Below, in pieces: positions 3,001-63,825 of a stretch of DNA of 64,000 nt; position 1 is the first letter of the stretch, and the number at the start of each line of letters is the position of its first letter. A program made the translations under genes and the position numbers. Location of the stretch: positions 62,001-126,000 of the forward strand of contig JABVXU010000017.1 of assembly GCA_013365365.1 (NCBI GenBank), read 5' to 3'. This DNA is from Cruorifilaria tuberocauda. Taxonomy: Eukaryota; Nematoda; Chromadorea; Rhabditida; Onchocercidae. Below the pieces are notes generated by a model. It made no database searches and was not told where the DNA came from. It saw only the letters and a program-made list of their open reading frames with translations.

Positions 3001-6000
3001 TAAGCATATCACCACAATTATTGAAGAAACTTACGAAGAACACAACAGTTACCCCTGATCCAATTAAACGTAGAAACCTATGACGAAACGTCAAATAAGG
3101 CTCCAACTGCTGCGTAACCGGATTGATTCGCATTGTTTTTGCTTTTTTAACACGTAACTGATATTCAGGCCTAACTGTTTCCTGAATTAAATAACATGAT
3201 CACAAAAAGTTTATATTAAAAATGAAAAAAATTTTTTTTCAAAGAGAATTTCAAATTATGATATTTATAAACATTGTGGATGCATTAAATATAATGAAAG
3301 AAAAAGGGAAAACAGATTTTGATAAATAGAAATTATGTAAGAACATAGCATTTATTGGAATAGTTAAATAGACGATATCTATTATTGTTAATAAAAGCTG
3401 ATGAATTGTCGACACATTCCAGACTTAGTGGGAGTGGGTTTATGTCCCGCAGTAATAATACTTTGTCTCAACAATCTACAGAGAATTTGAATCTGCAATT
3501 TTCCTACAGCATCACTATAATTTTCAAAAAAAATATACAGAGAACCTCGTCAACTTCAAAATCAAGCAAGCCCCATTTCCAAGCTACTTCAGCGTGATAT
3601 CTTTTCCATCCTTCTAAAAAGAGCGTTGCAAATATACTCATCATGGCGGCAAATATAACGGTCGACGTATTATCAAACACGTATGACAGCTGCAACTTAA
3701 TAATAAGTTCTTTACTAAATATTCATTGCAAAATAAACTGTAAGATAAAGTAAATAAAAATAAGTATGTAAATAAAACATATTTCTAATAAACGTGAATT
3801 AAAAGTAACAAAAATATCCTGCTTGATTAACTGATCACTTCAGAAAACTTTTTGAACTTTGCTTTTTAAAACAATAACAAGTACAGAGGCAATACCTTTG
3901 AATATATACAACTGGAATTAAGCCGAGTGTAATCACAGTACTTATCACATGTCGGACATAATATCACGTCAGCACCAATTCCATCACTGCCGCAAATGTC
4001 GTTACTAAAATACCAAAAAAAATTCGAATTGATAAAGGACCAATGTTTTACGTAAACGCAAACTATTATGAAGGCAAAAACTGGATAAAAATTAATCGCT
4101 ATTTACAGAGAAACAAAAGTAGACCTCGGTATATCTTGTGAAATTGTTGATATTCCATAAGCAAAACACAGAATGCCGATAACAGAAGCAAGAAGTAAAA
4201 TTTTCGTGTAGTAACCTAACCAAGCAAAATACCATCCAACTTTTGAGCCAAAATATTTCCTATAGAAGTGAAATTAACAAATTTCCCTGTTGTCAAAACT
4301 TCCGAAGTAATCCAAGAACCGCCATGAAAATCTTTTTAGTCAGTTTATTACAAATTCTCTATTGATAGTATTTATTATAAATTTGATTTCAAGCGAATGC
4401 ATAAAATATTGCGCATAAAATTCATCCTAACGCTAACAGCAATTAAAAATAGTGAATTTGACTTAAAATAATGTCAATTCATAAAATTTATTAATCAAAT
4501 CTGCGTTTTTGAGTTAAGATAACAATAATAGACATGTAAACTCGGTTTTTCCGCTATGAAGAACTTAGGAATGAATATAGATAACACTTGAAATTTCTCA
4601 ATAAATGGAAAAAAGAGAACGTGACAAGACAAAGAATGTTGACATACTTTATTAGCCAAAGTGGTTGATACTTGTAAATGTTTGTAATACGCGCCCAGTT
4701 CCAGTATAAAAATTCACGGTCGGTACTTCTATCAGCATTATACTTGCTCCAGTTGCAATCCTATGAATAAAAAATACAAGAAATAACAAATATTGTCGTA
4801 CGAAGTATATATCGATCGTCAACAAAAGGAACCGATTAAAAACAACAATCATCTAAGCATTTCTATTAAGATGATGAATGATGAAACTTGCATCAGAACA
4901 AATTACAAAGGCTAAATAAATGATCCCATAATCTAGAATGTCCAAAATTTATAAAAATATCTCGATTTGATATTTCGATGTTACCTCATGCAATGGAAAA
5001 GCTGACGTATATGTACCATTTTTGATCAAACGTTGTATGCCAACGCGGTATTTTTCAGCTTCATATATATCATACTTGGTTCGAATCAGCAAGTCATATA
5101 CTAATCGACTTCGTTCCGAATCGTCAAAGAATGTATTCGGGTTTTCATGGCCAACGTAACTCAAAACAATATACAAATACGTTCATATACATACAAAACA
5201 AAACTTAATTATTTGGATCATAATAAAACCATTCCTTTATACTGAATCAAACACTTGACGATTCACATACTTAATACAGCGGCTTTGGCCATGTTCTTTC
5301 TATACATCAATGACTAATCGCTGGTCAGGCTTTACTAATATATATTTGGTAATGGAATTTAAAAATAATTAAAAATCATACCATTCTAAATGAGCAGCCA
5401 CAAAGGGAGCTGTAAAATAATTTGGTTCTTTTAATCGTTCATTTGTCTTCTCATCAAATGTTAAAAAACGAAATCTTTTCATAAATTTGTCCAATATTCC
5501 TTCCAAAATAGTTCGCTCCTGAAATAGAGAGGCTAATATTCTGCAGCATTCATTACAAATGAGCTATGAAATTACATTATATTTCGTCATAGATCTGTTC
5601 TTTCTCACATAGATTCATATGCTCATATACCCGAAATACTCATACAGACAAAAACTAATTCACATATTTAAAAACTTTTTGATGCTGCTAAATTCCTCAG
5701 TTTTCAAATTATAAAGAAATATCTGCATATTCAATAGTAATTTTCTGACAAAATCATATTTCTCAAAATAAAATTAGATGCCAGTCTAATCAAGGTGATG
5801 CCAATTTTATCACAACAAAAGTAAACTAACTTTCACATCGCTCTGCAATACTGGCATTTTCAAACAAAGACTTTCAGCCTGTTTCATTAGTAACAAGAAT
5901 GGTGCATGAATTAATACAAAGTGAGTTCTTTTGCAATACTGAAAATTATAGGTTTTAAACTGTTTAAATTCTATGAATCGTTTTTTACAATAAATTTTTT

Positions 6001-10960: not shown

Positions 10961-13900
10961 CTAACCAAACCGCAAAATCCAAGAATCTTTCACTACAACA
11001 AGTGAGATATAGGAACTAAGTGCTGAATTCCTTGATGAACGGAAGTGAATATGTTCGCTTTTGATGGTGACTAGAAGAATGATTTAAAGGGATGTAAGTT
11101 TTATTCAGTCATTTAATTACAGGTGAATATGAAGAGAAAGAGACACTCGTCCAGATTTCAAATTGATTCGAAAGTGGCTGAAAATATAATGCTTATATGA
11201 TTATTAAAAAGTGATTTTATTATCAGTGATAGCAATAATATTCCGTAGGGACCATCACAGGCAGTGATGCTTTGTAATGGTCATTTAAAGTGATGCATGA
11301 AATATCGAAGTGGCATTAAAATTTATGATACAACAGCATGTATGCATTGCTCTTTCATAATCTTTTTTGGTTTTGGATTAAAGCTAATATGATAGATAGT
11401 AGTTAACCGGTGTTCAAGGAAGCATTGTGATCCATGGAAAATGTATTTCCCAGTGCTGTATCGCATCCTGACGAAATTGCTGATATCATCGATGAATTAC
11501 TCTTTGCTGCAAATAGTCATTAGCCGGATTACTCCAAATCTTACATGTTATCAATTATCGTTTCATGCAATACTATAAACTCTGCTTCGAAGAATTGATG
11601 AAATCGAATTTATTACACGTGTACTCTTTACCATAATAATGTTAATTTTGAAACAGTTTGTTAACTGAAATTTTCTAGAATTAATTCTATTATTTTATTA
11701 ATTTTATTCATTTAATATTAATTAATAATTGTATTCAGAGCAGTCGATTCTGCAAAGAATACCTGTGTTCAGTTCCTGACCTTCAAGAGATTCAAGAACG
11801 GAATTCTCGTTAACACCTAAAGCATGCAGCAAGTAAATAAATGGTAAATTAATAGTTTGGGCGGACGATAACTCTCATAATATCATCATATCTTCAACTT
11901 ATCTTCAAGAAAATAGACTGATTGGTCAAGTTTATCAAATATAGGTCATAACCAAACTCACTGTTATCAGTAAATGCAAGCAGCTGTTCCATATTATCGA
12001 GGTGCTGGACCGCCATCACAGATTTTTCCACAGGAACCGAGCCTTAAATCATTTGTTGCATGTATATATATATATATATTATTATCAGATATACATTATA
12101 TATATATATGTATATATACATAGTTGCTTTATATGTATAGGTAAGTAAATTTAAGAGATGTTTTGGAATATTTTTGGAAAATTGTTGCAAAAATGCTTCT
12201 AATTTATTACCGATTTCTTACTTCTCTTCTATTATTATACAGTCAAGCGAATGGGAACTATGATTTACCTTTACCATTATCAGATGATGAAAATAGCTCC
12301 AATTCATCGTTGATCGCTTCATTTACTCCAATTTCATTATTTAACAAGATGATGATAGATGTTTTCAACAAAGGAGAAATTATTATTTAATTAAGTAATC
12401 CTAGAAATTTTGAGAGTAATTTTGAAAGCTAATTTTTTAAAAAATTTGAAGAATCAATGAAGGAAAGAATAGATCGAATATTGAAAAAAGCTTACTTTGT
12501 CCAATAAACTCTAACGAATCTCTGACATACATGGGATGAAATTTCGGTGGACGTCCTAAATTTAATATTATCTTATCTTTTTTAATTGATCAACATTATT
12601 TATATAATAATACGAAATTGCGGAATTTATCATACGTGTATAAATATCGCTCGAGATGAGGCTATGCGTATCAGTATTGGAAATATCGCTGCTCCAAGAT
12701 ATTTGTCGTGCTGTATAATATAGGATCGCTTTTAATTATATGAAAATATCCTATTCCGCTTTACATTTTATTTTCTAAGAAATCTTTTTATATAATTCTA
12801 TGATAATGGCTACTACTTTTTTATCCTATCTAATCTTGTACTTGTTGCAAAAATTTAGGCAGGAAGAACAGAATCCTTCGAAATACATTACCAAAATAAA
12901 AAAGTACATGATTTATTATTTAACATCAAATATCTTAAATAGTTGTTAACTTTACTCAGATAATTACTCAATGTTAATGCCTTAAAATTTATTTCTTACA
13001 TGAAGTTAATGAGCGAAAGTTTATTGGCTACGTAAACCAAGTGCTTGAAAAATCTTATCATCAACCTGTCGTCGTTTTCAAATCATAATGAGCCTTGTTT
13101 CTGATTATGTGGTTGAAAAATAAAACACGTAAAAACTATTTCGAGGGCATAAAGCTTATGAATTACTTCACTCTTGACTGCTTTTGAATTGCTTCTCATA
13201 CGCTTTCAATTTAGCATTTTAACCAGGAAAAATATTCTCTACGCCAGTTTAAACATTTTTTTCCCTTTTTTCTCATTCTTCGAAAAAATTTTAAATACAT
13301 AATTCGGATTTCTGACAACAGCAAAGAAATCCATCTGATTGATAAAATAATCTTACCTGTATTCAGCCCTTCATGGGAAGTTTCCAAGTCACCTGCAATG
13401 ACCATATTTTGTCAACTCATATTAGAATTTCTCATTTTATTTTAGCTCCACATGTTTTTCTTTGAATTCTTCATAATATTCACAATATTTTGTTAAACAA
13501 AACAGCAAGTTGATCATAATAAACTGGTAATTTTAATAATTTTGGACTAACTGTCACATTCAATTTCAATAGCTGCTTCAGATTTCGGTTCAGTATATTC
13601 AGAATAGATTAAATGCGTTTCATGACCTGGAATTATATCTTTGCAGTCTTCATATATATTATTTTTAGAACTTGCATTTTTTATATAACATTTTACTCAT
13701 TGTGAATCAAAGAGACCTCAAAAGGAATTTGGTTTTATACATTGAAGGTAAAATCTTCATTTTCATTATTAACATATGTTAAATAGGTTGTATAATTACA
13801 ATATTTTTGATATTAGAAAACCAATAAAAACAAACCACAATAATACAGTACATTTGATAAATATTTAATAAAAATTCTATGAATGGGAAGCGGAAAATAA

Positions 13901-15004
13901 CCGAAGCATACCTTCGTCTCGAATTTTCCAAAGTGCAGGATTACCTGAAAACAGACTAAAATTATTTTTATTAGCGTAAATTTAATTCAAATAAATTCAA
14001 AAGCATGAAAGTTGAATGAACTTTGATAGTATGACAGCAAGACAGAAATGTTCACCAAAAATGGAGCACCATGGATGTCCATCGTATTCAATATCTGTCT
14101 CTGATGGAGGCTCATCGTAGTCAGAATAAATTAAACGAACTTCACGGCCTAAAAAGTTTAATTTTGTTCAAGAAAATTCCTACAAATCTCTTCTGATCTT
14201 CTTTGAGATAACAATATGACAAATTCGAGTGTTATTCACCAAGCATTTTTCTCCATGAATTGATTTATTGAAATACATTTTGCAATAGAACTTGCTCAGT
14301 TCGTTCATTTGGATAGTTAAATAGTCATCTAATATATTAGTGTAACCTTCAATTTTGTAATTGTGAAACAATTGGCTCATTTCAACGCTCGTCTCGGAAG
14401 GCGGTTCGTCGTACTCGGAGTAAACGAGACATACTTCTCTTCCGCCTTAAAATTTGCTGATACTAATCGTTTCTATCCAAGAAAATTACTAAGTTATTTG
14501 GCATCACGGTAGATAATGCCGGTTGTCGAATCTTCTGAATATCTCGGTATTTTATTTATTTTTCTTAAAGTAAACTACAACTAAATTGAAATGTTCATTT
14601 AAAAGCTGATTACATCGTGGTGAGCAGTAATTATTAGTTCCATGTGGCGCATGATTGTAGTAGGAATTAATTTCATCAACTGCTGCAAATCATTATAATG
14701 AAATGTAGGAAATTATCAAAAATAATATATTATAGGTGATTATGGGTAAGTGCCACACTCACTCGACTTTGAACTTTGCCACCAAAAATATTGAGGTCCT
14801 TCTATTACTTCAACATCAGTTTCCGACGGAGTGCAATCGTACTCCGAAAATATAAGATGAACGCCTCGACCTAAAAAGTTCTCGACAGTATATCTATCAA
14901 AAATTAATTCCTCCTAATAAAGAAAAATATGTGTACCGACCATCATTATTGTTATCCACACTTTCTTTGCTTTCGTCATTTATCGGTGATGGTGGAGAAT
15001 GCAT
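10961..15004 (-). CDS. Unrecognised gene of symmetric phase-1 micro-exons with repeated YSEYD-PPSET module
   Basis: I do not recognise the family. I trace exons (5' to 3') at 15004-14941, 14870-14763, 14682-14614, 14445-14347, 14148-14056, 13944-13912, 13626-13558, 13392-13357, 12555-12496, 12042-11962, 11816-11763 and 11506-11408, plus a possible last exon at 11070-10961 (stop TAG). Every junction is phase 1, so each internal exon (33-108 bases) is a symmetric cassette. Four exons carry one module: GRGVHLIFSEYD-CTPSET, GREVCLVYSEYDEPPSET, GREVRLIYSDYDEPPSET and GHETHLIYSEYTEPKSEA. Three carry another ending before the donor: HEGLNTG, GQELNTG and NASLNTG. The full chain gives about 324 residues. 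The first exon reads MHSPPSPINDESKES; no signal peptide is seen, but the frame is open upstream to an acceptor-like CAAG, so an earlier exon is possible. The donors of exons 1, 4 and 7 are weak. The last exon and the exact number of cassettes are uncertain. The gene lies tail-side of the Cys-rich gene on the same strand. Confidence 0.6.
12063..12122. repeat. TA-rich microsatellite
   Basis: Runs of alternating TA, interrupted by TTATTATCAGATATACAT, lie in an intron of the micro-exon gene. The two TA blocks can pair with each other. This is simple-sequence DNA with no further function visible. Confidence 0.8.
12193..12390 (+). CDS. Possible small secreted protein, antisense inside an intron
   Basis: This single open frame encodes 65 residues. 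It starts MLLIYYRFLTSLLLLYSQ, which resembles a signal peptide, and continues as a short D/S/N-rich tail (PLSDDENSSNSS). It lies on the plus strand within an intron (12043-12495) of the minus-strand micro-exon gene. There is no homologue that I recognise and no clear trans-splice site, so it may be a chance frame. Confidence 0.25.
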   Translation: MLLIYYRFLTSLLLLYSQANGNYDLPLPLSDDENSSNSSLIASFTPISLFNKMMIDVFNKGEIII

Positions 15005-15198
15005 TATAATGGGATTATGAAACAACCGTCTTGAATAAGTACAAAAGTGCACAGTGAAGAAAAGAAAATAATTCATTTATTTTATAATTATTTGGAAAGT
15101 TTCCGGAAATTCAATGTGGAAATTTTCGGATGACAGCTTATATCAGAATGATTTAATTGCATTTCTTGCAGTCATCAAAAGTGAACAGTTTGGTGAAG

Positions 15199-15354
15199 AT
15201 GGGCACTATAACAATTATTATAATTATTGCTGCTGCCGTTATTTTATACTTTTTTTGCTATTATAGAAAGCAGGTTATCGTCATATCTAAATTGGGAAAC
15301 TTAAACTCACTCCTTTTTCCTGAGACTGATTTCAGCAAAGATTTATTGCAATGA
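15199..15354 (+). CDS. Possible 51-residue single-pass membrane micropeptide
   Basis: The ATG at 15199 follows a good acceptor (TTTCTTGCAG, ending at 15170) that could accept a spliced leader. The frame reads MGTITIIIIIAAAVILYFF followed by CYYRKQ: a strong hydrophobic helix then a basic stop-transfer segment. A stop follows after 51 codons. A donor-like GT after RKQ would make it a first exon instead. It is head-to-head with the micro-exon gene, whose first ATG is 195 bases away on the other strand. I know of no homologue. Confidence 0.3.
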   Translation: MGTITIIIIIAAAVILYFFCYYRKQVIVISKLGNLNSLLFPETDFSKDLLQ

Positions 15355-15868
15355 AATAAAAATAGCAAAGCTATGAAACCTGAAACTGATTTGAGATAGG
15401 AAAAAAAAGAAATCCGTACGGACTATCACTGATCATATCAAAAAGAATATGAGAGGTAATTATTTTCAATTTGACGCCTTTTTCAGAGAAGGATATATGA
15501 AAGAAAGACCCAAGAGGAAAGGTCATCAAGTGGATATAGGCCAGGTTCCAGAACTGCAATTGGAGAGGTCGATTTCATACTGATTATAAAATTCAATTTT
15601 AATTTAACTTAGAAATGAAATAGCAAGCAAGATTGAAAATAATCATCATACTAACTTTTCACCTGCTCAATTCAATTTTATTTAAGCAAAACTTTTCCAT
15701 CCAAAACTTATTAGGTGCGTGCTTACCTATACATTATTTTCAGAGCTCAAATTACTTAACTCCGACAATGACACGAGGCCGCTCCATTCATATTGAACCA
15801 GCTTAACGTTTATTCTAATTTCAATTTCCATGTAAAAAATTAACAATGTGCGAAGTATCGATGATTGA

Positions 15869-45385: not shown

Positions 45386-48300
45386 ATGGCACAATATCTA
45401 TTCTCATATTATCTATTTTTACTCCTACTGATATTACTGTTTCTTGGTCCGATAAGTTCTATTCCAATCGATAACGGTGTTGAGGGTGAACCTGAAATCG
45501 AATGTGGCCCAACATCAATTACTGTTAATTTCAACACAAGAAATTCATTCGAAGGTTTATTTGTGAATAACAAAATTTGTTGCAATTCGATTTTCAAAAT
45601 TGTAGCATGTGTTCAATTACTTTATATTTCTTTTTTCTACTCGTACTTTCTCCAGCAATCACTTTCCGATTTGCCTTTCCTGATTTGCTTAAAACAATAT
45701 TTTTAACTAAATACTCAAATTAGTCAATTAGTTAAACTAATCGAATTTTGATATTTCATTCAACCAGTTGGTTAAAGAAGAATGCAAATATGATTGAATG
45801 AAATATTTAAATTTGAATAATTTGACTTAATTGATTATTATTCGAATAGAAGTTATCACTTAAAAAATTGATCGAAGTATTTTCAACTATTTTATTCAAA
45901 TTAAACAAAAATGACAATATATTTAGTGACTGAGCTTTTATTAAATAAAATTGATATTAAAACTTCAAGAAATATAAAAATAATAAACATCCGCCAATTT
46001 CTGTTTTCATGATACAGACTTTTCTCTGAAAAAGGCAATTCGGAACCCTTTTTAATAATTGCATAAATTCTGAGAAAAAAAGAAAATTTTTTAATGACTG
46101 TTAAATTCCGTCATTCAGGGCATGTTTACGTGAAAGGCCTGTATGATCAGGAAGAATGTCGATCAGGTGAAGGTGGTCGTCAAGTAGCAGGAATTGAGGT
46201 TTCATTCGATACGTGTAACATAGCAAGGACAAGATCGTTGAATCCACGTGGTGTCTTCGTTACAACCACTATTGTCGTCTCATTTCATCCGATCTTCATG
46301 ACTAAAATCGATCGCGTCTATCGTGTACAGTGCTTCTATATGGAATCTGATAAATCAGTGAGCACGCAAGTTGAAGTCTCGGAAATAATTAATACTTACT
46401 TTCAGACTCAAGTGGTTGCAATGCCAGTTTGTCGATATGAGGTCATTTGTCGATTTATTTTCATTTCCAACTAATACAATTATAGGCTAAAGGAGCAAAG
46501 AAGATAGAAATAGATAGAGCTTCATCTTAGGTAATCGATTGAAATGCGGGAGTTTTCCTTCAAAAAATACAAAATCTGTTCTCAACTTTTCGATTTTCGC
46601 TTCTTCTCAAGAAATTGTTTTAACATGTTATGATTCATATCCAAAATTCGTTAATTTTCACTTTTAGTAAATTTAATAATATGACTTCGTTAAAAATTAA
46701 TAATTTATTTAAATTGGCTCACTTCATCGTTTAGAATTTGCACCGTAATCACATCCTGTACCCCTAAATTTCAGCTATTGGATAGCGGCCCGGCTGGACA
46801 ACCGGTTCAATATGCAATGGTTGGTCAGCCAGTATATCATAGTTGGATATGTGATTCAGAAACGGTAGATACCTTTTGCGCTTTGGTACATTCGTGTTTC
46901 GTCGATGATGGTAACGGTGATACGGTGCAAATTCTAAATGATGAAGGATGTGCTTTGGACAAATACCTCCTAAATAACTTGGAATATCCAACCGATTTAA
47001 TGGCTGGGCAAGAAGCTCACGTATATAAATTTGCTGATCGATCGCAACTTATTTATCAATGTCAAATAACAATTTCAATCAAAGAGCCAAATGGAGAATG
47101 TGAACGACCGAAATGTCCGGAGCCGGAAGGATTTGGTTCAATTAAGGAAAGTAGTAGGATAAACCGTGAAAGAGAAACTGAATTAGTGACGCCTGTATCA
47201 CAAATGAGATTATTGAGGAAGAGGGCTGCTGATTACGATTCAACAGTGGATGTTAGAACTGATATTAATACATTGGATATCATCGATGAGGTTTGAAATA
47301 ATTTTTTGAATTGAAATAAAGAAATGTCTTGTTATAGATGTTAATTTGGAATAAGCTGATTTTTGACAGCTAACACATATTTCGCTATCTATGGAGTGCA
47401 GCATTTTGAAGCCAAAAAGAAAATGTACCATATTGCAAAATGCATTTGCATATTCATACAATGTTTGCAGTCAGTAGAAAATTTTTAGTGAAAGCTCTCG
47501 AACTGAAATTACTCACTCTGATTATCGATCGTTTATAAAAACATTTGAAATCTTTTCTAATCATATTTAAAGGGCAGTAAATGAACAAATTCCATTTTCT
47601 CGATTTAATTTCGTTTAATTAATTTCATTTAATTACATGCCAATCTTCTGTCCGAAGTAATTTTGAAAAAACAATATGAAATTATATAAAATACTTGTGC
47701 TAATAAGTCGAAATTTTCTGTTTGTTAAGAGTTTTATTAATAATATTAAATGAAATGAGGCTTAAGCTACCTACGCCTCTTAAACGTGTGGGATTTAGAA
47801 CGAGCTACCATATGCTATGCATAGTTTCGACCGATTGTTAGGTATAGTATTTTTCAGCCAAAACATCATGTGATAATGAATAAGATCTTCAATTTGCTTT
47901 TTGTTAGTAATTGAGATTATAAAGAAAAAATGGAATGATTTTTTCCCAACAATTAGTATTCTTGTAAATATGAATTATTCACGAATAAAAAAACATCGAG
48001 CTTAATTTAAATCAAAAAGTTCAAGAAACTTGTTTTTTACTGCAATAAAAAATAAGCCTAATTGCTAGGTAAGAATATAGTGATGCTATTGAAAGAAAAT
48101 TTTATTTCATAGTGAATTCCTGATTCCTTAGCAAAGTTATAATTCGAGAATGTATGATGCGCATAACAAATGTTCCAATGTGCGAATGTAAATGTAATGC
48201 CATCATTGTGAATGATGCATTTCCAAATTTTACATTTTGCGTTAATTTGCAGGAGGCAATAATGCCAGAAGAGTTACGGTATGGGGCAGGATTACATCAT

Positions 48301-61512: not shown

Positions 61513-63825
61513 CTAAAAATCTGGAAAACGACTGGCATCCTCTCGATAAGATTTCGGTATTTTGAACATTTTTGGCGTTAGATCACTGCGGAACATAAAT
61601 TTTTGGAATGTGACTTTGGCTGATATTGTTGGCAGTACAGGAATTTCTGGAATGAAATAACACGTCATAAATTGTTAATAAAATATCCATGGAAAAATAA
61701 CTAACTCTAAACTTTTGTTTTTGAAAAATTCCTTTTTAAAAACTCTATGTGATTCTAAAGTCTAAAATATATTTCTGGAGGTTGAGAAATATTTACCAAC
61801 TCGAATTGGAAAACCAGGTGGAAGCTTCATTTTACAAAAACACCGTAATTTATCGAAGTGCTTAAAGGGTGCAACAATCTCGAGAATATCCAATAAAACG
61901 TCAACTGAAAGGGGGAAATCTTCGGCCTGAAAAATTTGGATGCATTATAGAAGGAAAAAAACTAATCAAAAAAAAAATGAGCAACACTTATTTGAAAATT
62001 ATTATTTTAATCATTAATAATATATAATGCTCAAGTTTTCATCCAATTTTTTACAACTTTGCTAGATCTATTAGGTCGTTTGGAAAGTTTAACTAATATA
62101 GCTGTCAAGTACCTTATTTTTTCCTAGCATGAGAAATGAAAGGAAATTTTCTAAAAAGTTCGATAAAACACGTAAAATAATATATAATGTAGTCCTAAAA
62201 TTATTAGTAGAAAAATTCATACCATTGCAATAAGAGCTTTAAATTTCTTCGTAGTCTGTTTAACAACCTGAACGCGTCCCAGAGAAGGAGCAAAACCAGC
62301 AGCAGCACTAATATATTCTTCCCATGTGGTCGTCATTCTTCGCGGTGGAGGTAGACTTTTCCGGTGTTGAAGGCTCTGAAATTACTAACATTCAAGGGAT
62401 ACAGTAACACGAATAAATTCAGTCATTTTTTCTGTTATTAATGCGCGTTAATCGATTTGCTTAGAATTCGAAAACACAACAAAACCCTTACAAAGAGTTA
62501 TCAAATGAAATACGACTTCAACGTACTATGAACTCATCTTCTGCCATCAATGATCCCATCGTTAAACTTTGCATGAATGCTTTGTTCTTCTTGATATCTT
62601 CTACTGTCAAGTGTTCTCTTCTGCAAAATGCAATCTGTTAAAAAAATAGAACTTCACATAAAGTTAAATTACCAAATATTAAACAATTCGATCTACATCA
62701 TTTTAACCCCTTTTTTTCTATGACTCAACTTCTGAATGCATGCGATATCGCTAGTAAATAGCAGAACAATGAGAGAGGAAGCCTATAACTAAACACAACC
62801 ATTCTGGTTAAGCAATAGTAACTTACATTTTTTCAGAAAATTTAAAACAAATTTTTTCGAAAGGAAAGCTAACCGTTTCCGTGTAATCAGCGATATACCA
62901 TCCATAGTATAATAAACAGCATTATAATCACCAACTTGTTCCTGCAAAATCGATATTACTATTAGAAAAGGATACGGAAAATTCCGAAATGAGATATCTC
63001 AACTTATACCATAAAAGACGAAAATCCCGAAGGAATCGAATTAAACAATCAAAAATAAGGAAAACTTACCAGTTTTTCGTGTTTGAAAATCCAACCACTT
63101 ATTGCTCTTTCAAACGTTATTGGCTTCGTAGACATCTGAGCACTTACAATATCAGAAGACATTAGAACATCAATTTCTTCATCCAATTCAGTTTCTGATT
63201 GCTCATGCCTTATACGTTGGAATACCTCAAGTAATGTAATTTATTGTAAGCGCAAGAAAATTAAATAAAAATAAGATCGGTAAGTTTCTCTGAAAAATTC
63301 TTCGGTATTGGAAAAAACCTTAGCTTCATGATCTAAAATCAGGAGCTGGTCCTTCGAGCGATCCGGATCTGATGCAAAGATGAAGGATATGTCACCACGT
63401 TCCCAGGCTCGATCATTAAAATCAACTAACGTTGTATCCAACCTCACACTTGTCCCACGTTTATATATTCTGCATACATCCGAGGGAAGTATCTTCGTTA
63501 GCAGAGGAACTAAAACTTTAAAGTACGCAGGAGAATTTCTAGACCTTTCAAATGATGTTAATTTTAGAGTCAGAAAGATGAAGAGATGAATTCTACTAAA
63601 TGACGCTCGCGATGTAAAATGAACGGATTTATTAACAAAAATGGATATTTTAAAAATAGTAGAATCATCAGAAGAAAATAAGAGTTAACTTACGCCAGCT
63701 TTGGAAGTCCCATCTCAATTCCAAATAAAAATCACCAAACTCAGATAGCATCTTAAGCAATTGAGGTTTTCGAGCTGCCATATTTTCCCGCGACTGATCC
63801 TTCAATTTGCGTAACATGGCCGTAA
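61513..63825 (-). CDS. ANKRD13: ANKRD13 family protein, 5' (ankyrin) part outside window
   Basis: ANKRD13 proteins have N-terminal ankyrin repeats and a GPCR-chaperone domain; mammalian members bind ubiquitinated receptors during endocytosis and lysosomal sorting. Nine exons are present and in phase: 63825-63694, 63509-63319, 63225-63070, 62941-62874, 62620-62527, 62375-62223, 61926-61797 and 61646-61513 (stop TAG), with earlier exons beyond 64000. Landmarks are YLELRWDFQSWLPLLTKILP, YKRGTSVRLDTTLVDFNDRA, WERGDISFIFAS, STKPITFERAISGW, YYTMDGISLITRKR, the tryptophan motif MTTTWEEYISAAA, and CKMKLPPGFPIRVEIPVLPT near the end. No ubiquitin-interacting motif is visible in the C-terminal 45 residues, which end ASRFPDF, so this matches the shorter type of the family. 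Confidence 0.95.

What the first reader, a model, noticed from the sequence alone, without database searches (positions are those of the whole stretch)
10961..15004. A nematode gene made of symmetric phase-1 micro-exons
Eleven consecutive internal exons of 33-108 bases all start and end in phase 1, and several are visible duplicates: four with the GR-x-V-x-L-I-Y-S-E-Y-D-x-P-P-S-E-T module and three ending LNTG before the donor. Any exon can be skipped or repeated without breaking the frame, so one gene could make many protein variants. This is the architecture of the micro-exon genes known from schistosomes; I know of no described counterpart in nematodes. The exon borders are seen in sequence. 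The variant-generating role is inference.
Basis: partly seen in the sequence, partly recalled or inferred. Interest (0 to 1): 0.85.

Follow-up and report, generated by a model that had tools for sequence, protein, structure and literature searches.

The report
Nematode gene of skippable motif exons
This is a real, conserved and apparently undescribed roundworm gene whose protein is built from small frame-preserving exons, four of which each carry one copy of the same short motif, and the gene models of related filarial worms leave out different exons.

Summary
On the minus strand (15004-11158) lies one gene with 12 supported internal exons (33-108 nt) plus a 13th with a weak acceptor, all symmetric in phase 1. 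It is the orthologue of the uncharacterised Brugia malayi gene Bm10331; orthologues were found in eight named filarial species (Brugia included), Gongylonema and Thelazia, and weaker motif relatives in Toxocara, Panagrellus and two strongylids. Motif search finds only this locus in the genome; Pfam gives nothing above cut-off; no confident fold is predicted. Four exons each carry S-x-Y-D-x-P-P-S-E-T-x-V-E. The copies are ancient and kept by protein-level selection. Two B. malayi models, and models of other species, differ by whole exons at the boundaries predicted here. That supports cassette splicing, but no RNA was available. It is not a schistosome-type micro-exon gene: 2 of 13 internal exons are 36 nt or less, no signal peptide is visible, and the modules evolve slowly. 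Best reading: an intracellular, disordered docking protein whose linker, tail and sometimes motif content is set by splicing. The motif's partner is unknown; YxxP (SH2) docking is one testable guess.

The parts
14941..15004 (-). E1, start codon at 15004, 64 nt, ends phase 1 (MHSPPSPINDESKESVDNNND)
   Evidence: 8 of 9 filarial models start at the same M; the peptide itself is poorly conserved (passes the shuffle test in 4 of 9)
14763..14870 (-). E2, 108 nt, phase 1-1, motif copy 1 (RGVHLIFSEYDCTPSETDVEV...)
   Evidence: in 9 of 9 filarial models P0001-P0009 and in Gongylonema and Thelazia
14614..14682 (-). E3, 69 nt, phase 1-1, cassette; GCAGCAG tandem acceptor
   Evidence: present in 4 of 9 filarial models (P0001, P0002, P0007, P0008), absent in 5; donor score 2.7
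14347..14445 (-). E4, 99 nt, phase 1-1, motif copy 2 (REVCLVYSEYDEPPSETSVEM...)
   Evidence: present in 8 of 9 filarial models; missing in the D. immitis model P0005; donor score 2.7
14056..14148 (-). E5, 93 nt, phase 1-1, motif copy 3 (REVRLIYSDYDEPPSETDIEY...PWCSIF)
   Evidence: in 9 of 9 filarial models
13912..13944 (-). E6, 33 nt, phase 1-1 (NPALWKIRDE)
   Evidence: in 9 of 9 filarial models
13552..13626 (-). E7, 75 nt, phase 1-1, motif copy 4 (HETHLIYSEYTEPKSEAAIEI)
   Evidence: in 9 of 9 filarial models; 7 of 9 (P0002, P0003, P0005-P0009) have a longer end to it, which holds an in-frame stop here
13357..13392 (-). E8, 36 nt, phase 1-1, cassette (DLETSHEGLNT)
   Evidence: by eye present in P0001, P0002, P0004, P0007, P0009, absent in P0003, P0005, P0006, unclear in P0008; the shuffle test passes only P0001, P0004, P0007
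12636..12710 (-). E9, 75 nt, phase 1-1, cassette
   Evidence: absent in the C. johnstoni model, where E8 joins E10 with the predicted junction G
12496..12555 (-). E10, 60 nt, phase 1-1, cassette
   Evidence: absent in the O. ochengi model
12275..12325 (-). E10b, 51 nt, phase 1-1, candidate cassette with weak acceptor
   Evidence: of 12 proteins tested the peptide matches P0001 and P0002 only; acceptor score -2.4, donor 5.1
11962..12042 (-). E11, 81 nt, phase 1-1
   Evidence: in P0001-P0006 and P0012
11763..11816 (-). E12, 54 nt, phase 1-1, cassette (VNENSVLESLEGQELNT)
   Evidence: absent in C. johnstoni, where E11 joins E13 with the predicted junction T
11408..11506 (-). E13, 99 nt, phase 1-1; weak donor
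   Evidence: donor score 2.3; P0003, P0004, P0006, P0012 end in NSG right here, as if the next intron were read
11158..11177 (-). E14, terminal coding exon (ATFESI, stop)
   Evidence: acceptor score 11.0; matches the C-termini of P0001, P0002, P0005
11100..11105 (-). poly(A) signal AATAAA
   Evidence: sequence
15030..15031 (-). AG of a possible trans-splice (or 5' UTR) acceptor upstream of the start codon
   Evidence: inference from a pyrimidine-rich tract and AG in the sequence

Best explanation
A conserved nematode gene (orthologue of B. malayi Bm10331; only this locus found by motif search) codes for an intracellular, mostly disordered docking protein. Four ancient duplicate exons each carry one copy of a short linear motif (S-x-Y-[DST]-x-P-P-S-E-T-x-V-E) that probably binds a partner or is phosphorylated. 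All internal exons are symmetric in phase 1, so splicing can include or leave out linker, tail and sometimes motif exons and thereby set docking sites and spacers. Shown here: gene, exon phases, motif, conservation, differing deposited models. Inferred: that the differing models reflect regulated splicing, that the protein stays in the cell, that it is disordered, and that the motif is a docking or phosphorylation site.
For: Nine filarial proteins at E 1.7e-70 or better; relatives beyond. In the 26 motif copies compared (seven species) the nearest copy in another species sits at the same position in 26 of 26; mean identity 0.83 between orthologous copies against 0.60 within a species. Saturated synonymous change against low pN. 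Partner-specific junction residues fit the phase-1 model: E2-E3 T in 4 of 4, E2-E4 S in 3 of 4, E2-E5 S, E8-E10 G and E11-E13 T in 1 of 1 each. AlphaFold mean pLDDT 37.5 for P0002 and 43.2 for a strongylid relative. The three weakest donors belong to E3, E4 and E13, the places where relatives' models also differ.
Against: No RNA was available, and exon differences between deposited models can be prediction errors. Over all junctions 68 of 89 residues agree, not far above the general identity of 54-73%, so that total carries little weight; 21 disagree, and several assignments in truncated models or where the script took a longer E7 for E8 (P0003, P0005, P0006) are doubtful. Motif exons E2, E5 and E7 are in 9 of 9 filarial models, so variation falls mainly on linkers and tail. 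Low pLDDT also follows from shallow alignments (11 and 4 sequences); short low-confidence helices are predicted in both, and one ten-residue block of the strongylid protein averages 73.
Confidence: 0.6

Rival explanations
1. One constitutive transcript. The gene is ordinary except for exon phase; missing exons in relatives are gene-prediction errors, and the symmetric phases are only a fossil of tandem exon duplication.
For: The deposited models carry no stated evidence, several look truncated (P0007-P0011), and O. ochengi and O. volvulus, close sister species, differ at E3.
Against: Two B. malayi models of the same gene name differ by three whole exons. Exons without the motif are all phase 1 too.
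Confidence: 0.27
2. A nematode counterpart of schistosome micro-exon genes: a secreted protein diversified by exon skipping to face the host.
For: Symmetric exons and exon-level differences between models.
Against: No signal peptide by inspection; only E6 and E8 are 36 nt or less; the modules are strongly conserved; a three-motif relative occurs in Panagrellus, which is free-living (recalled).
Confidence: 0.03
3. A sharper form of the best reading: the motif is a tyrosine-phosphorylation docking site, tandem YxxP (YDEP in E4 and E5) read by Crk- or Nck-type SH2 domains, so the protein works like the p130Cas substrate domain.
For: Y in 46 of 48 copies and YxxP in 36 of 48. The p130Cas substrate domain is disordered with 15 YxxP repeats that, phosphorylated, bind effectors such as Crk and Nck (PMC3983058, passages).
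Against: Motif copy 1 has A or T at the P position in 7 of 8 filariae counted. SH2 binding does not explain the conserved S-E and V-E positions. No phosphorylation data.
Confidence: 0.15
4. A sharper form of the best reading: the motif is a serine/threonine (casein-kinase-2 type) phosphosite or a SUMO-binding patch rather than a tyrosine site.
For: T at the tenth position in 37 of 48 copies with E/D three residues on in 45 of 48; a V-x-L-I-like patch before the motif in 33 of 48. Both consensus patterns are recalled, not looked up.
Against: The patch is missing from the nine Panagrellus and strongylid copies; no binding data.
Confidence: 0.12

Closest known systems
Brugia malayi Bm10331 (uncharacterised; P0002, P0003) and filarial orthologues, e.g. 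Loa loa LOAG_03602
   Same: Orthologous gene: same exon peptides in the same order.
   Different: By protein alignment B. malayi has longer ends to E7 and E11 and a differently placed E10b start. None of Bm10331, LOAG_03602, A0A0J9XX05 or OVOC10331 (the last a guessed name) occurs in the held paper library.
Toxocara canis Tcan_14178, Panagrellus redivivus A0A7E4UVV4, Cylicocyclus nassatus P0015, Heligmosomoides polygyrus P0016
   Same: Two (Toxocara) or three copies of the motif each.
   Different: Little similarity outside the motif; exon structure unknown; first-contact E-values 2.8e-9, 0.21, 0.0097 and 1.1.
Schistosome micro-exon genes (MEGs)
   Same: Chains of symmetric exons.
   Different: Here 11 of 13 internal exons are 51-108 nt; no visible signal peptide; slow evolution; another phylum.
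p130Cas/BCAR1 substrate domain
   Same: Tandem YxxP motifs in a region without predicted fold.
   Different: No SH3 or FAT-like domain found; four motifs, three of them YxxP, instead of 15; extra conserved residues.

Membership tests
Schistosome-type micro-exon gene | About 80% of coding sequence in symmetric exons of 6-36 bp (PMC5825161, passages) | tested here: not met
   E6 (33 nt) and E8 (36 nt) only: 69 of 1017 coding nt
Schistosome-type micro-exon gene | Consecutive symmetric exons | tested here: met
   13 of 13 internal exons, phase 1-1, one of them (E10b) weak
Schistosome-type micro-exon gene | Secreted or membrane-exposed, signal peptide | tested here: not met
   By inspection only: MHSPPSPINDESKESVDNNND has no hydrophobic stretch; no signal-peptide program was run
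Schistosome-type micro-exon gene | Protein variants made by exon skipping | tested here: inconclusive
   Deposited models differ by exons; no RNA or peptides
Bm10331 orthologue group | Same exon peptides in the same order | tested here: met
p130Cas/BCAR1 | N-terminal SH3 and C-terminal FAT-like domain (PMC5043372, passages) | tested here: not met
   This gene: one Pfam hit, below cut-off (DUF3885, provisional model); 11 relatives: no SH3 or FAT, best E 0.061
p130Cas/BCAR1 | Tandem YxxP motifs | tested here: met
   3 of 4 copies in this gene (E4, E5, E7); 36 of 48 across 14 species
p130Cas/BCAR1 | Motif region intrinsically disordered | tested here: inconclusive
   pLDDT 37.5 for P0002 with a shallow alignment
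p130Cas/BCAR1 | Tyrosine phosphorylation and SH2 binding | not testable with these tools
   needs biochemistry

The most novel reading that the evidence does not exclude
A nematode-wide, undescribed family of disordered adaptor proteins defined by a tandem S-x-Y-x-x-P-x-S-E-T-x-V-E docking motif. In filariae each docking site sits on its own symmetric exon, so cells or life stages set the valency and spacing of a signalling scaffold by splicing.
Probability: 0.2. Interest if true: 0.75.

Novelty: new variant of a known kind. Interest (0 to 1): 0.5.

Why it matters
It gives a conserved and testable case of a parasite-lineage gene whose protein is assembled from one-motif-per-exon pieces that can all be skipped in frame, and it points to a nematode motif family that the Pfam copy used here does not match. 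If the motif's partner were found, the link between exon choice and docking valency could be tested directly.

Tried and rejected
Reading E4 through to the stop at 14180 (88-aa open frame): none of the nine filarial models carries that tail. A signal peptide from an upstream in-frame ATG: that stretch looks like an acceptor tract, and 8 of 9 filarial models start at the later M. Pfam: sub-threshold hits only. Solved structures: two hits at E about 1, taken as chance. Text searches for motif letters and gene names: 0 papers. Searches for nematode micro-exon, symmetric-exon or cassette-exon genes: I saw titles and abstract starts of 20 of 30, 20 of 87, 20 of 1330, 12 of 1273 and 6 of 6 papers and no nematode counterpart among them; this is not proof of absence. 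No genomic DNA of relatives was fetched, so their exon boundaries are inferred from proteins. P0017, an 80-aa piece from an unnamed contig with an E7-like stretch, was not used.

Full report
What is there. The window belongs to an unnamed 71.7-Mb assembly; a neighbouring gene is a cuticlin, and the gene's closest proteins are filarial. On the minus strand, from 15004 to 11158, reading frames flanked by splice sites form one gene. The final model has E1 (64 nt), 13 internal exons of 33-108 nt and a 20-nt terminal exon; every internal exon is a multiple of three and joins its neighbours in phase 1. E10b has a poor acceptor (score -2.4) and is a candidate only. The splice scores use a matrix written from general knowledge of nematode introns, not trained on this genome. 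Leaving out any one internal exon keeps the frame; of all 8192 subsets 8160 stay open. Exons are richer in G+C than introns (codon positions 0.49, 0.40, 0.34 against 0.265).

Is it more than chance. Counting candidate phase-1 exons is suggestive but not decisive: 14 here at the lax threshold against a tile median of 2, with top tiles of 11-13 whose overlap with this locus I did not check. The decisive evidence is homology. Four exons encode the same module; between copies 53-93% of synonymous but only 23-39% of non-synonymous sites differ. A search of 5.8 billion proteins found nine filarial proteins at E 1.7e-70 or better: B. malayi (two models), W. bancrofti, L. loa, O. volvulus, O. ochengi, D. 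immitis, L. sigmodontis and C. johnstoni. Profile searches added Gongylonema (4.8e-62), Thelazia (1.7e-50), a second W. bancrofti piece (6.9e-42), Toxocara (2.8e-9) and weakly Panagrellus (0.21), then Cylicocyclus (0.0097), Heligmosomoides (1.1) and an 80-aa unnamed piece (1.1). Panagrellus and the two strongylids each hold three copies of the motif. Database names of some of these proteins (dehydratase, SET, NAC, Agenet, Tudor) find no support in Pfam: of 11 members scanned no family matched more than one, best E 0.061 (the strongylid proteins were not in that scan). Within this genome a motif search gave four matches, all at this locus.

Exon variation among relatives. By alignment E1, E2, E5, E6 and E7 are in 9 of 9; E1 is poorly conserved and passes the shuffle test in 4 of 9. 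E4 is missing only in D. immitis. E3 is present in four and absent in five. E8, E9, E10, E10b and E12 vary; three of these models, and the W. bancrofti piece P0012, stop as if reading into the intron after E13. P0007, P0008 and P0009 end early and say little about the tail. The two B. malayi models differ at E3, E8, E10b, the E1/E2 junction and the C-terminus. The phase-1 model predicts a different junction residue depending on which exon follows, and this fits for E2-E3 (T, 4 of 4), E2-E4 (S, 3 of 4), E2-E5 (S), E8-E10 (G) and E11-E13 (T), one model each for the last three. Over all junctions 68 of 89 residues agree, which is not far above the general identity of 54-73%; the script also took a longer E7 for E8 in three models and made doubtful joins in the truncated ones. 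I could not see what evidence the deposited models rest on, so this supports cassette splicing without proving it.

Age and mode of evolution. I compared 26 motif copies from seven species (this one, L. sigmodontis, B. malayi, C. johnstoni, L. loa, Gongylonema, Thelazia; D. immitis, both Onchocerca species and W. bancrofti were left out). In 26 of 26 the nearest copy in another species sits at the same position (ties not examined). Orthologous copies average 0.83 identity (lowest 0.64), copies within a species 0.60 (highest 0.77). The duplications of E2, E4 and E5 therefore predate the split of filariae from Thelazia and Gongylonema, and each copy is held by selection. This is the opposite of what a fast-changing host-facing protein would show.

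The motif. I collected 48 copies in 14 species with a pattern (P0003, P0008, P0012 and P0017 were not included). The counts are S 48, Y 46, P 38, S-E 47 and 47, T 37, V/I 48, E/D 45. The pattern itself allowed only S or A, Y/C/H/L, S or T, E or V, and V or I at those places, so those counts are partly built in; the P position was free. In the seven filarial species with full modules all four copies were picked up (three in D. immitis), so there the choice removed nothing. Structure prediction gives no confident fold, though shallow alignments also give low confidence, and no solved structure is convincingly related. The motif could be a phosphotyrosine docking site of the YxxP kind (36 of 48; YDEP in E4 and E5), like the disordered p130Cas substrate domain with its 15 YxxP repeats (PMC3983058 passages; PMC5043372 passages). 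It could instead be an acidic serine/threonine phosphosite or a SUMO-binding patch. None of these is tested.

Compared with micro-exon genes. By the description in PMC5825161 (passages) MEGs have about 80% of coding sequence in 6-36 bp symmetric exons and are almost without exception secreted or exposed. Here 69 of 1017 coding nt are in such exons and the N-terminus has no hydrophobic stretch. The gene shares the principle of symmetric exons but is not a member. [quoted passage not shown] mansoni is unusual in how much of the gene they fill; it mentions nematodes once and neither Brugia nor filariae.

Verdict. A real, conserved nematode gene with an unusual one-motif-per-exon layout, for which I found no description in the held library. 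Splice-made diversity is likely on sequence grounds but awaits RNA; the schistosome analogy is loose.

Noticed in passing
13357-13319 (minus strand, start of the intron after E8): The Loa loa model P0009 reads on past E8 as GEIILAIRWTTLL; the window's intron start reads GKIILSIRWISLL in the same frame (9 of 13 identical). This could be a conserved alternative ending or a constrained intron.
   Followed up: partly
15200-15810, plus strand: A small gene that seems to start about 200 bases away in the opposite direction, with a membrane-spanning N-terminus (MGTITIIIIIAAAVILYFFCYYRKQ...); its joined protein is a guess by eye; Pfam hits all below cut-off.
   Followed up: partly
12145-12390, plus strand: An 81-aa open frame, hydrophobic after its ATG, lies antisense to E10b inside an intron; no Pfam hit; probably chance.
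   Followed up: partly
13551-13525, minus strand: The longer end of E7 seen in 7 of 9 filarial models contains an in-frame stop here, so this species seems to lack that variant.
   Followed up: partly
46067-47293, plus strand: Cuticlin gene (CUT_N and CUT_C domains).
   Followed up: partly
3507-3722 and 63244-63684, minus strand: Exons of an anoctamin and of an ANKRD13-like gene.
   Followed up: no
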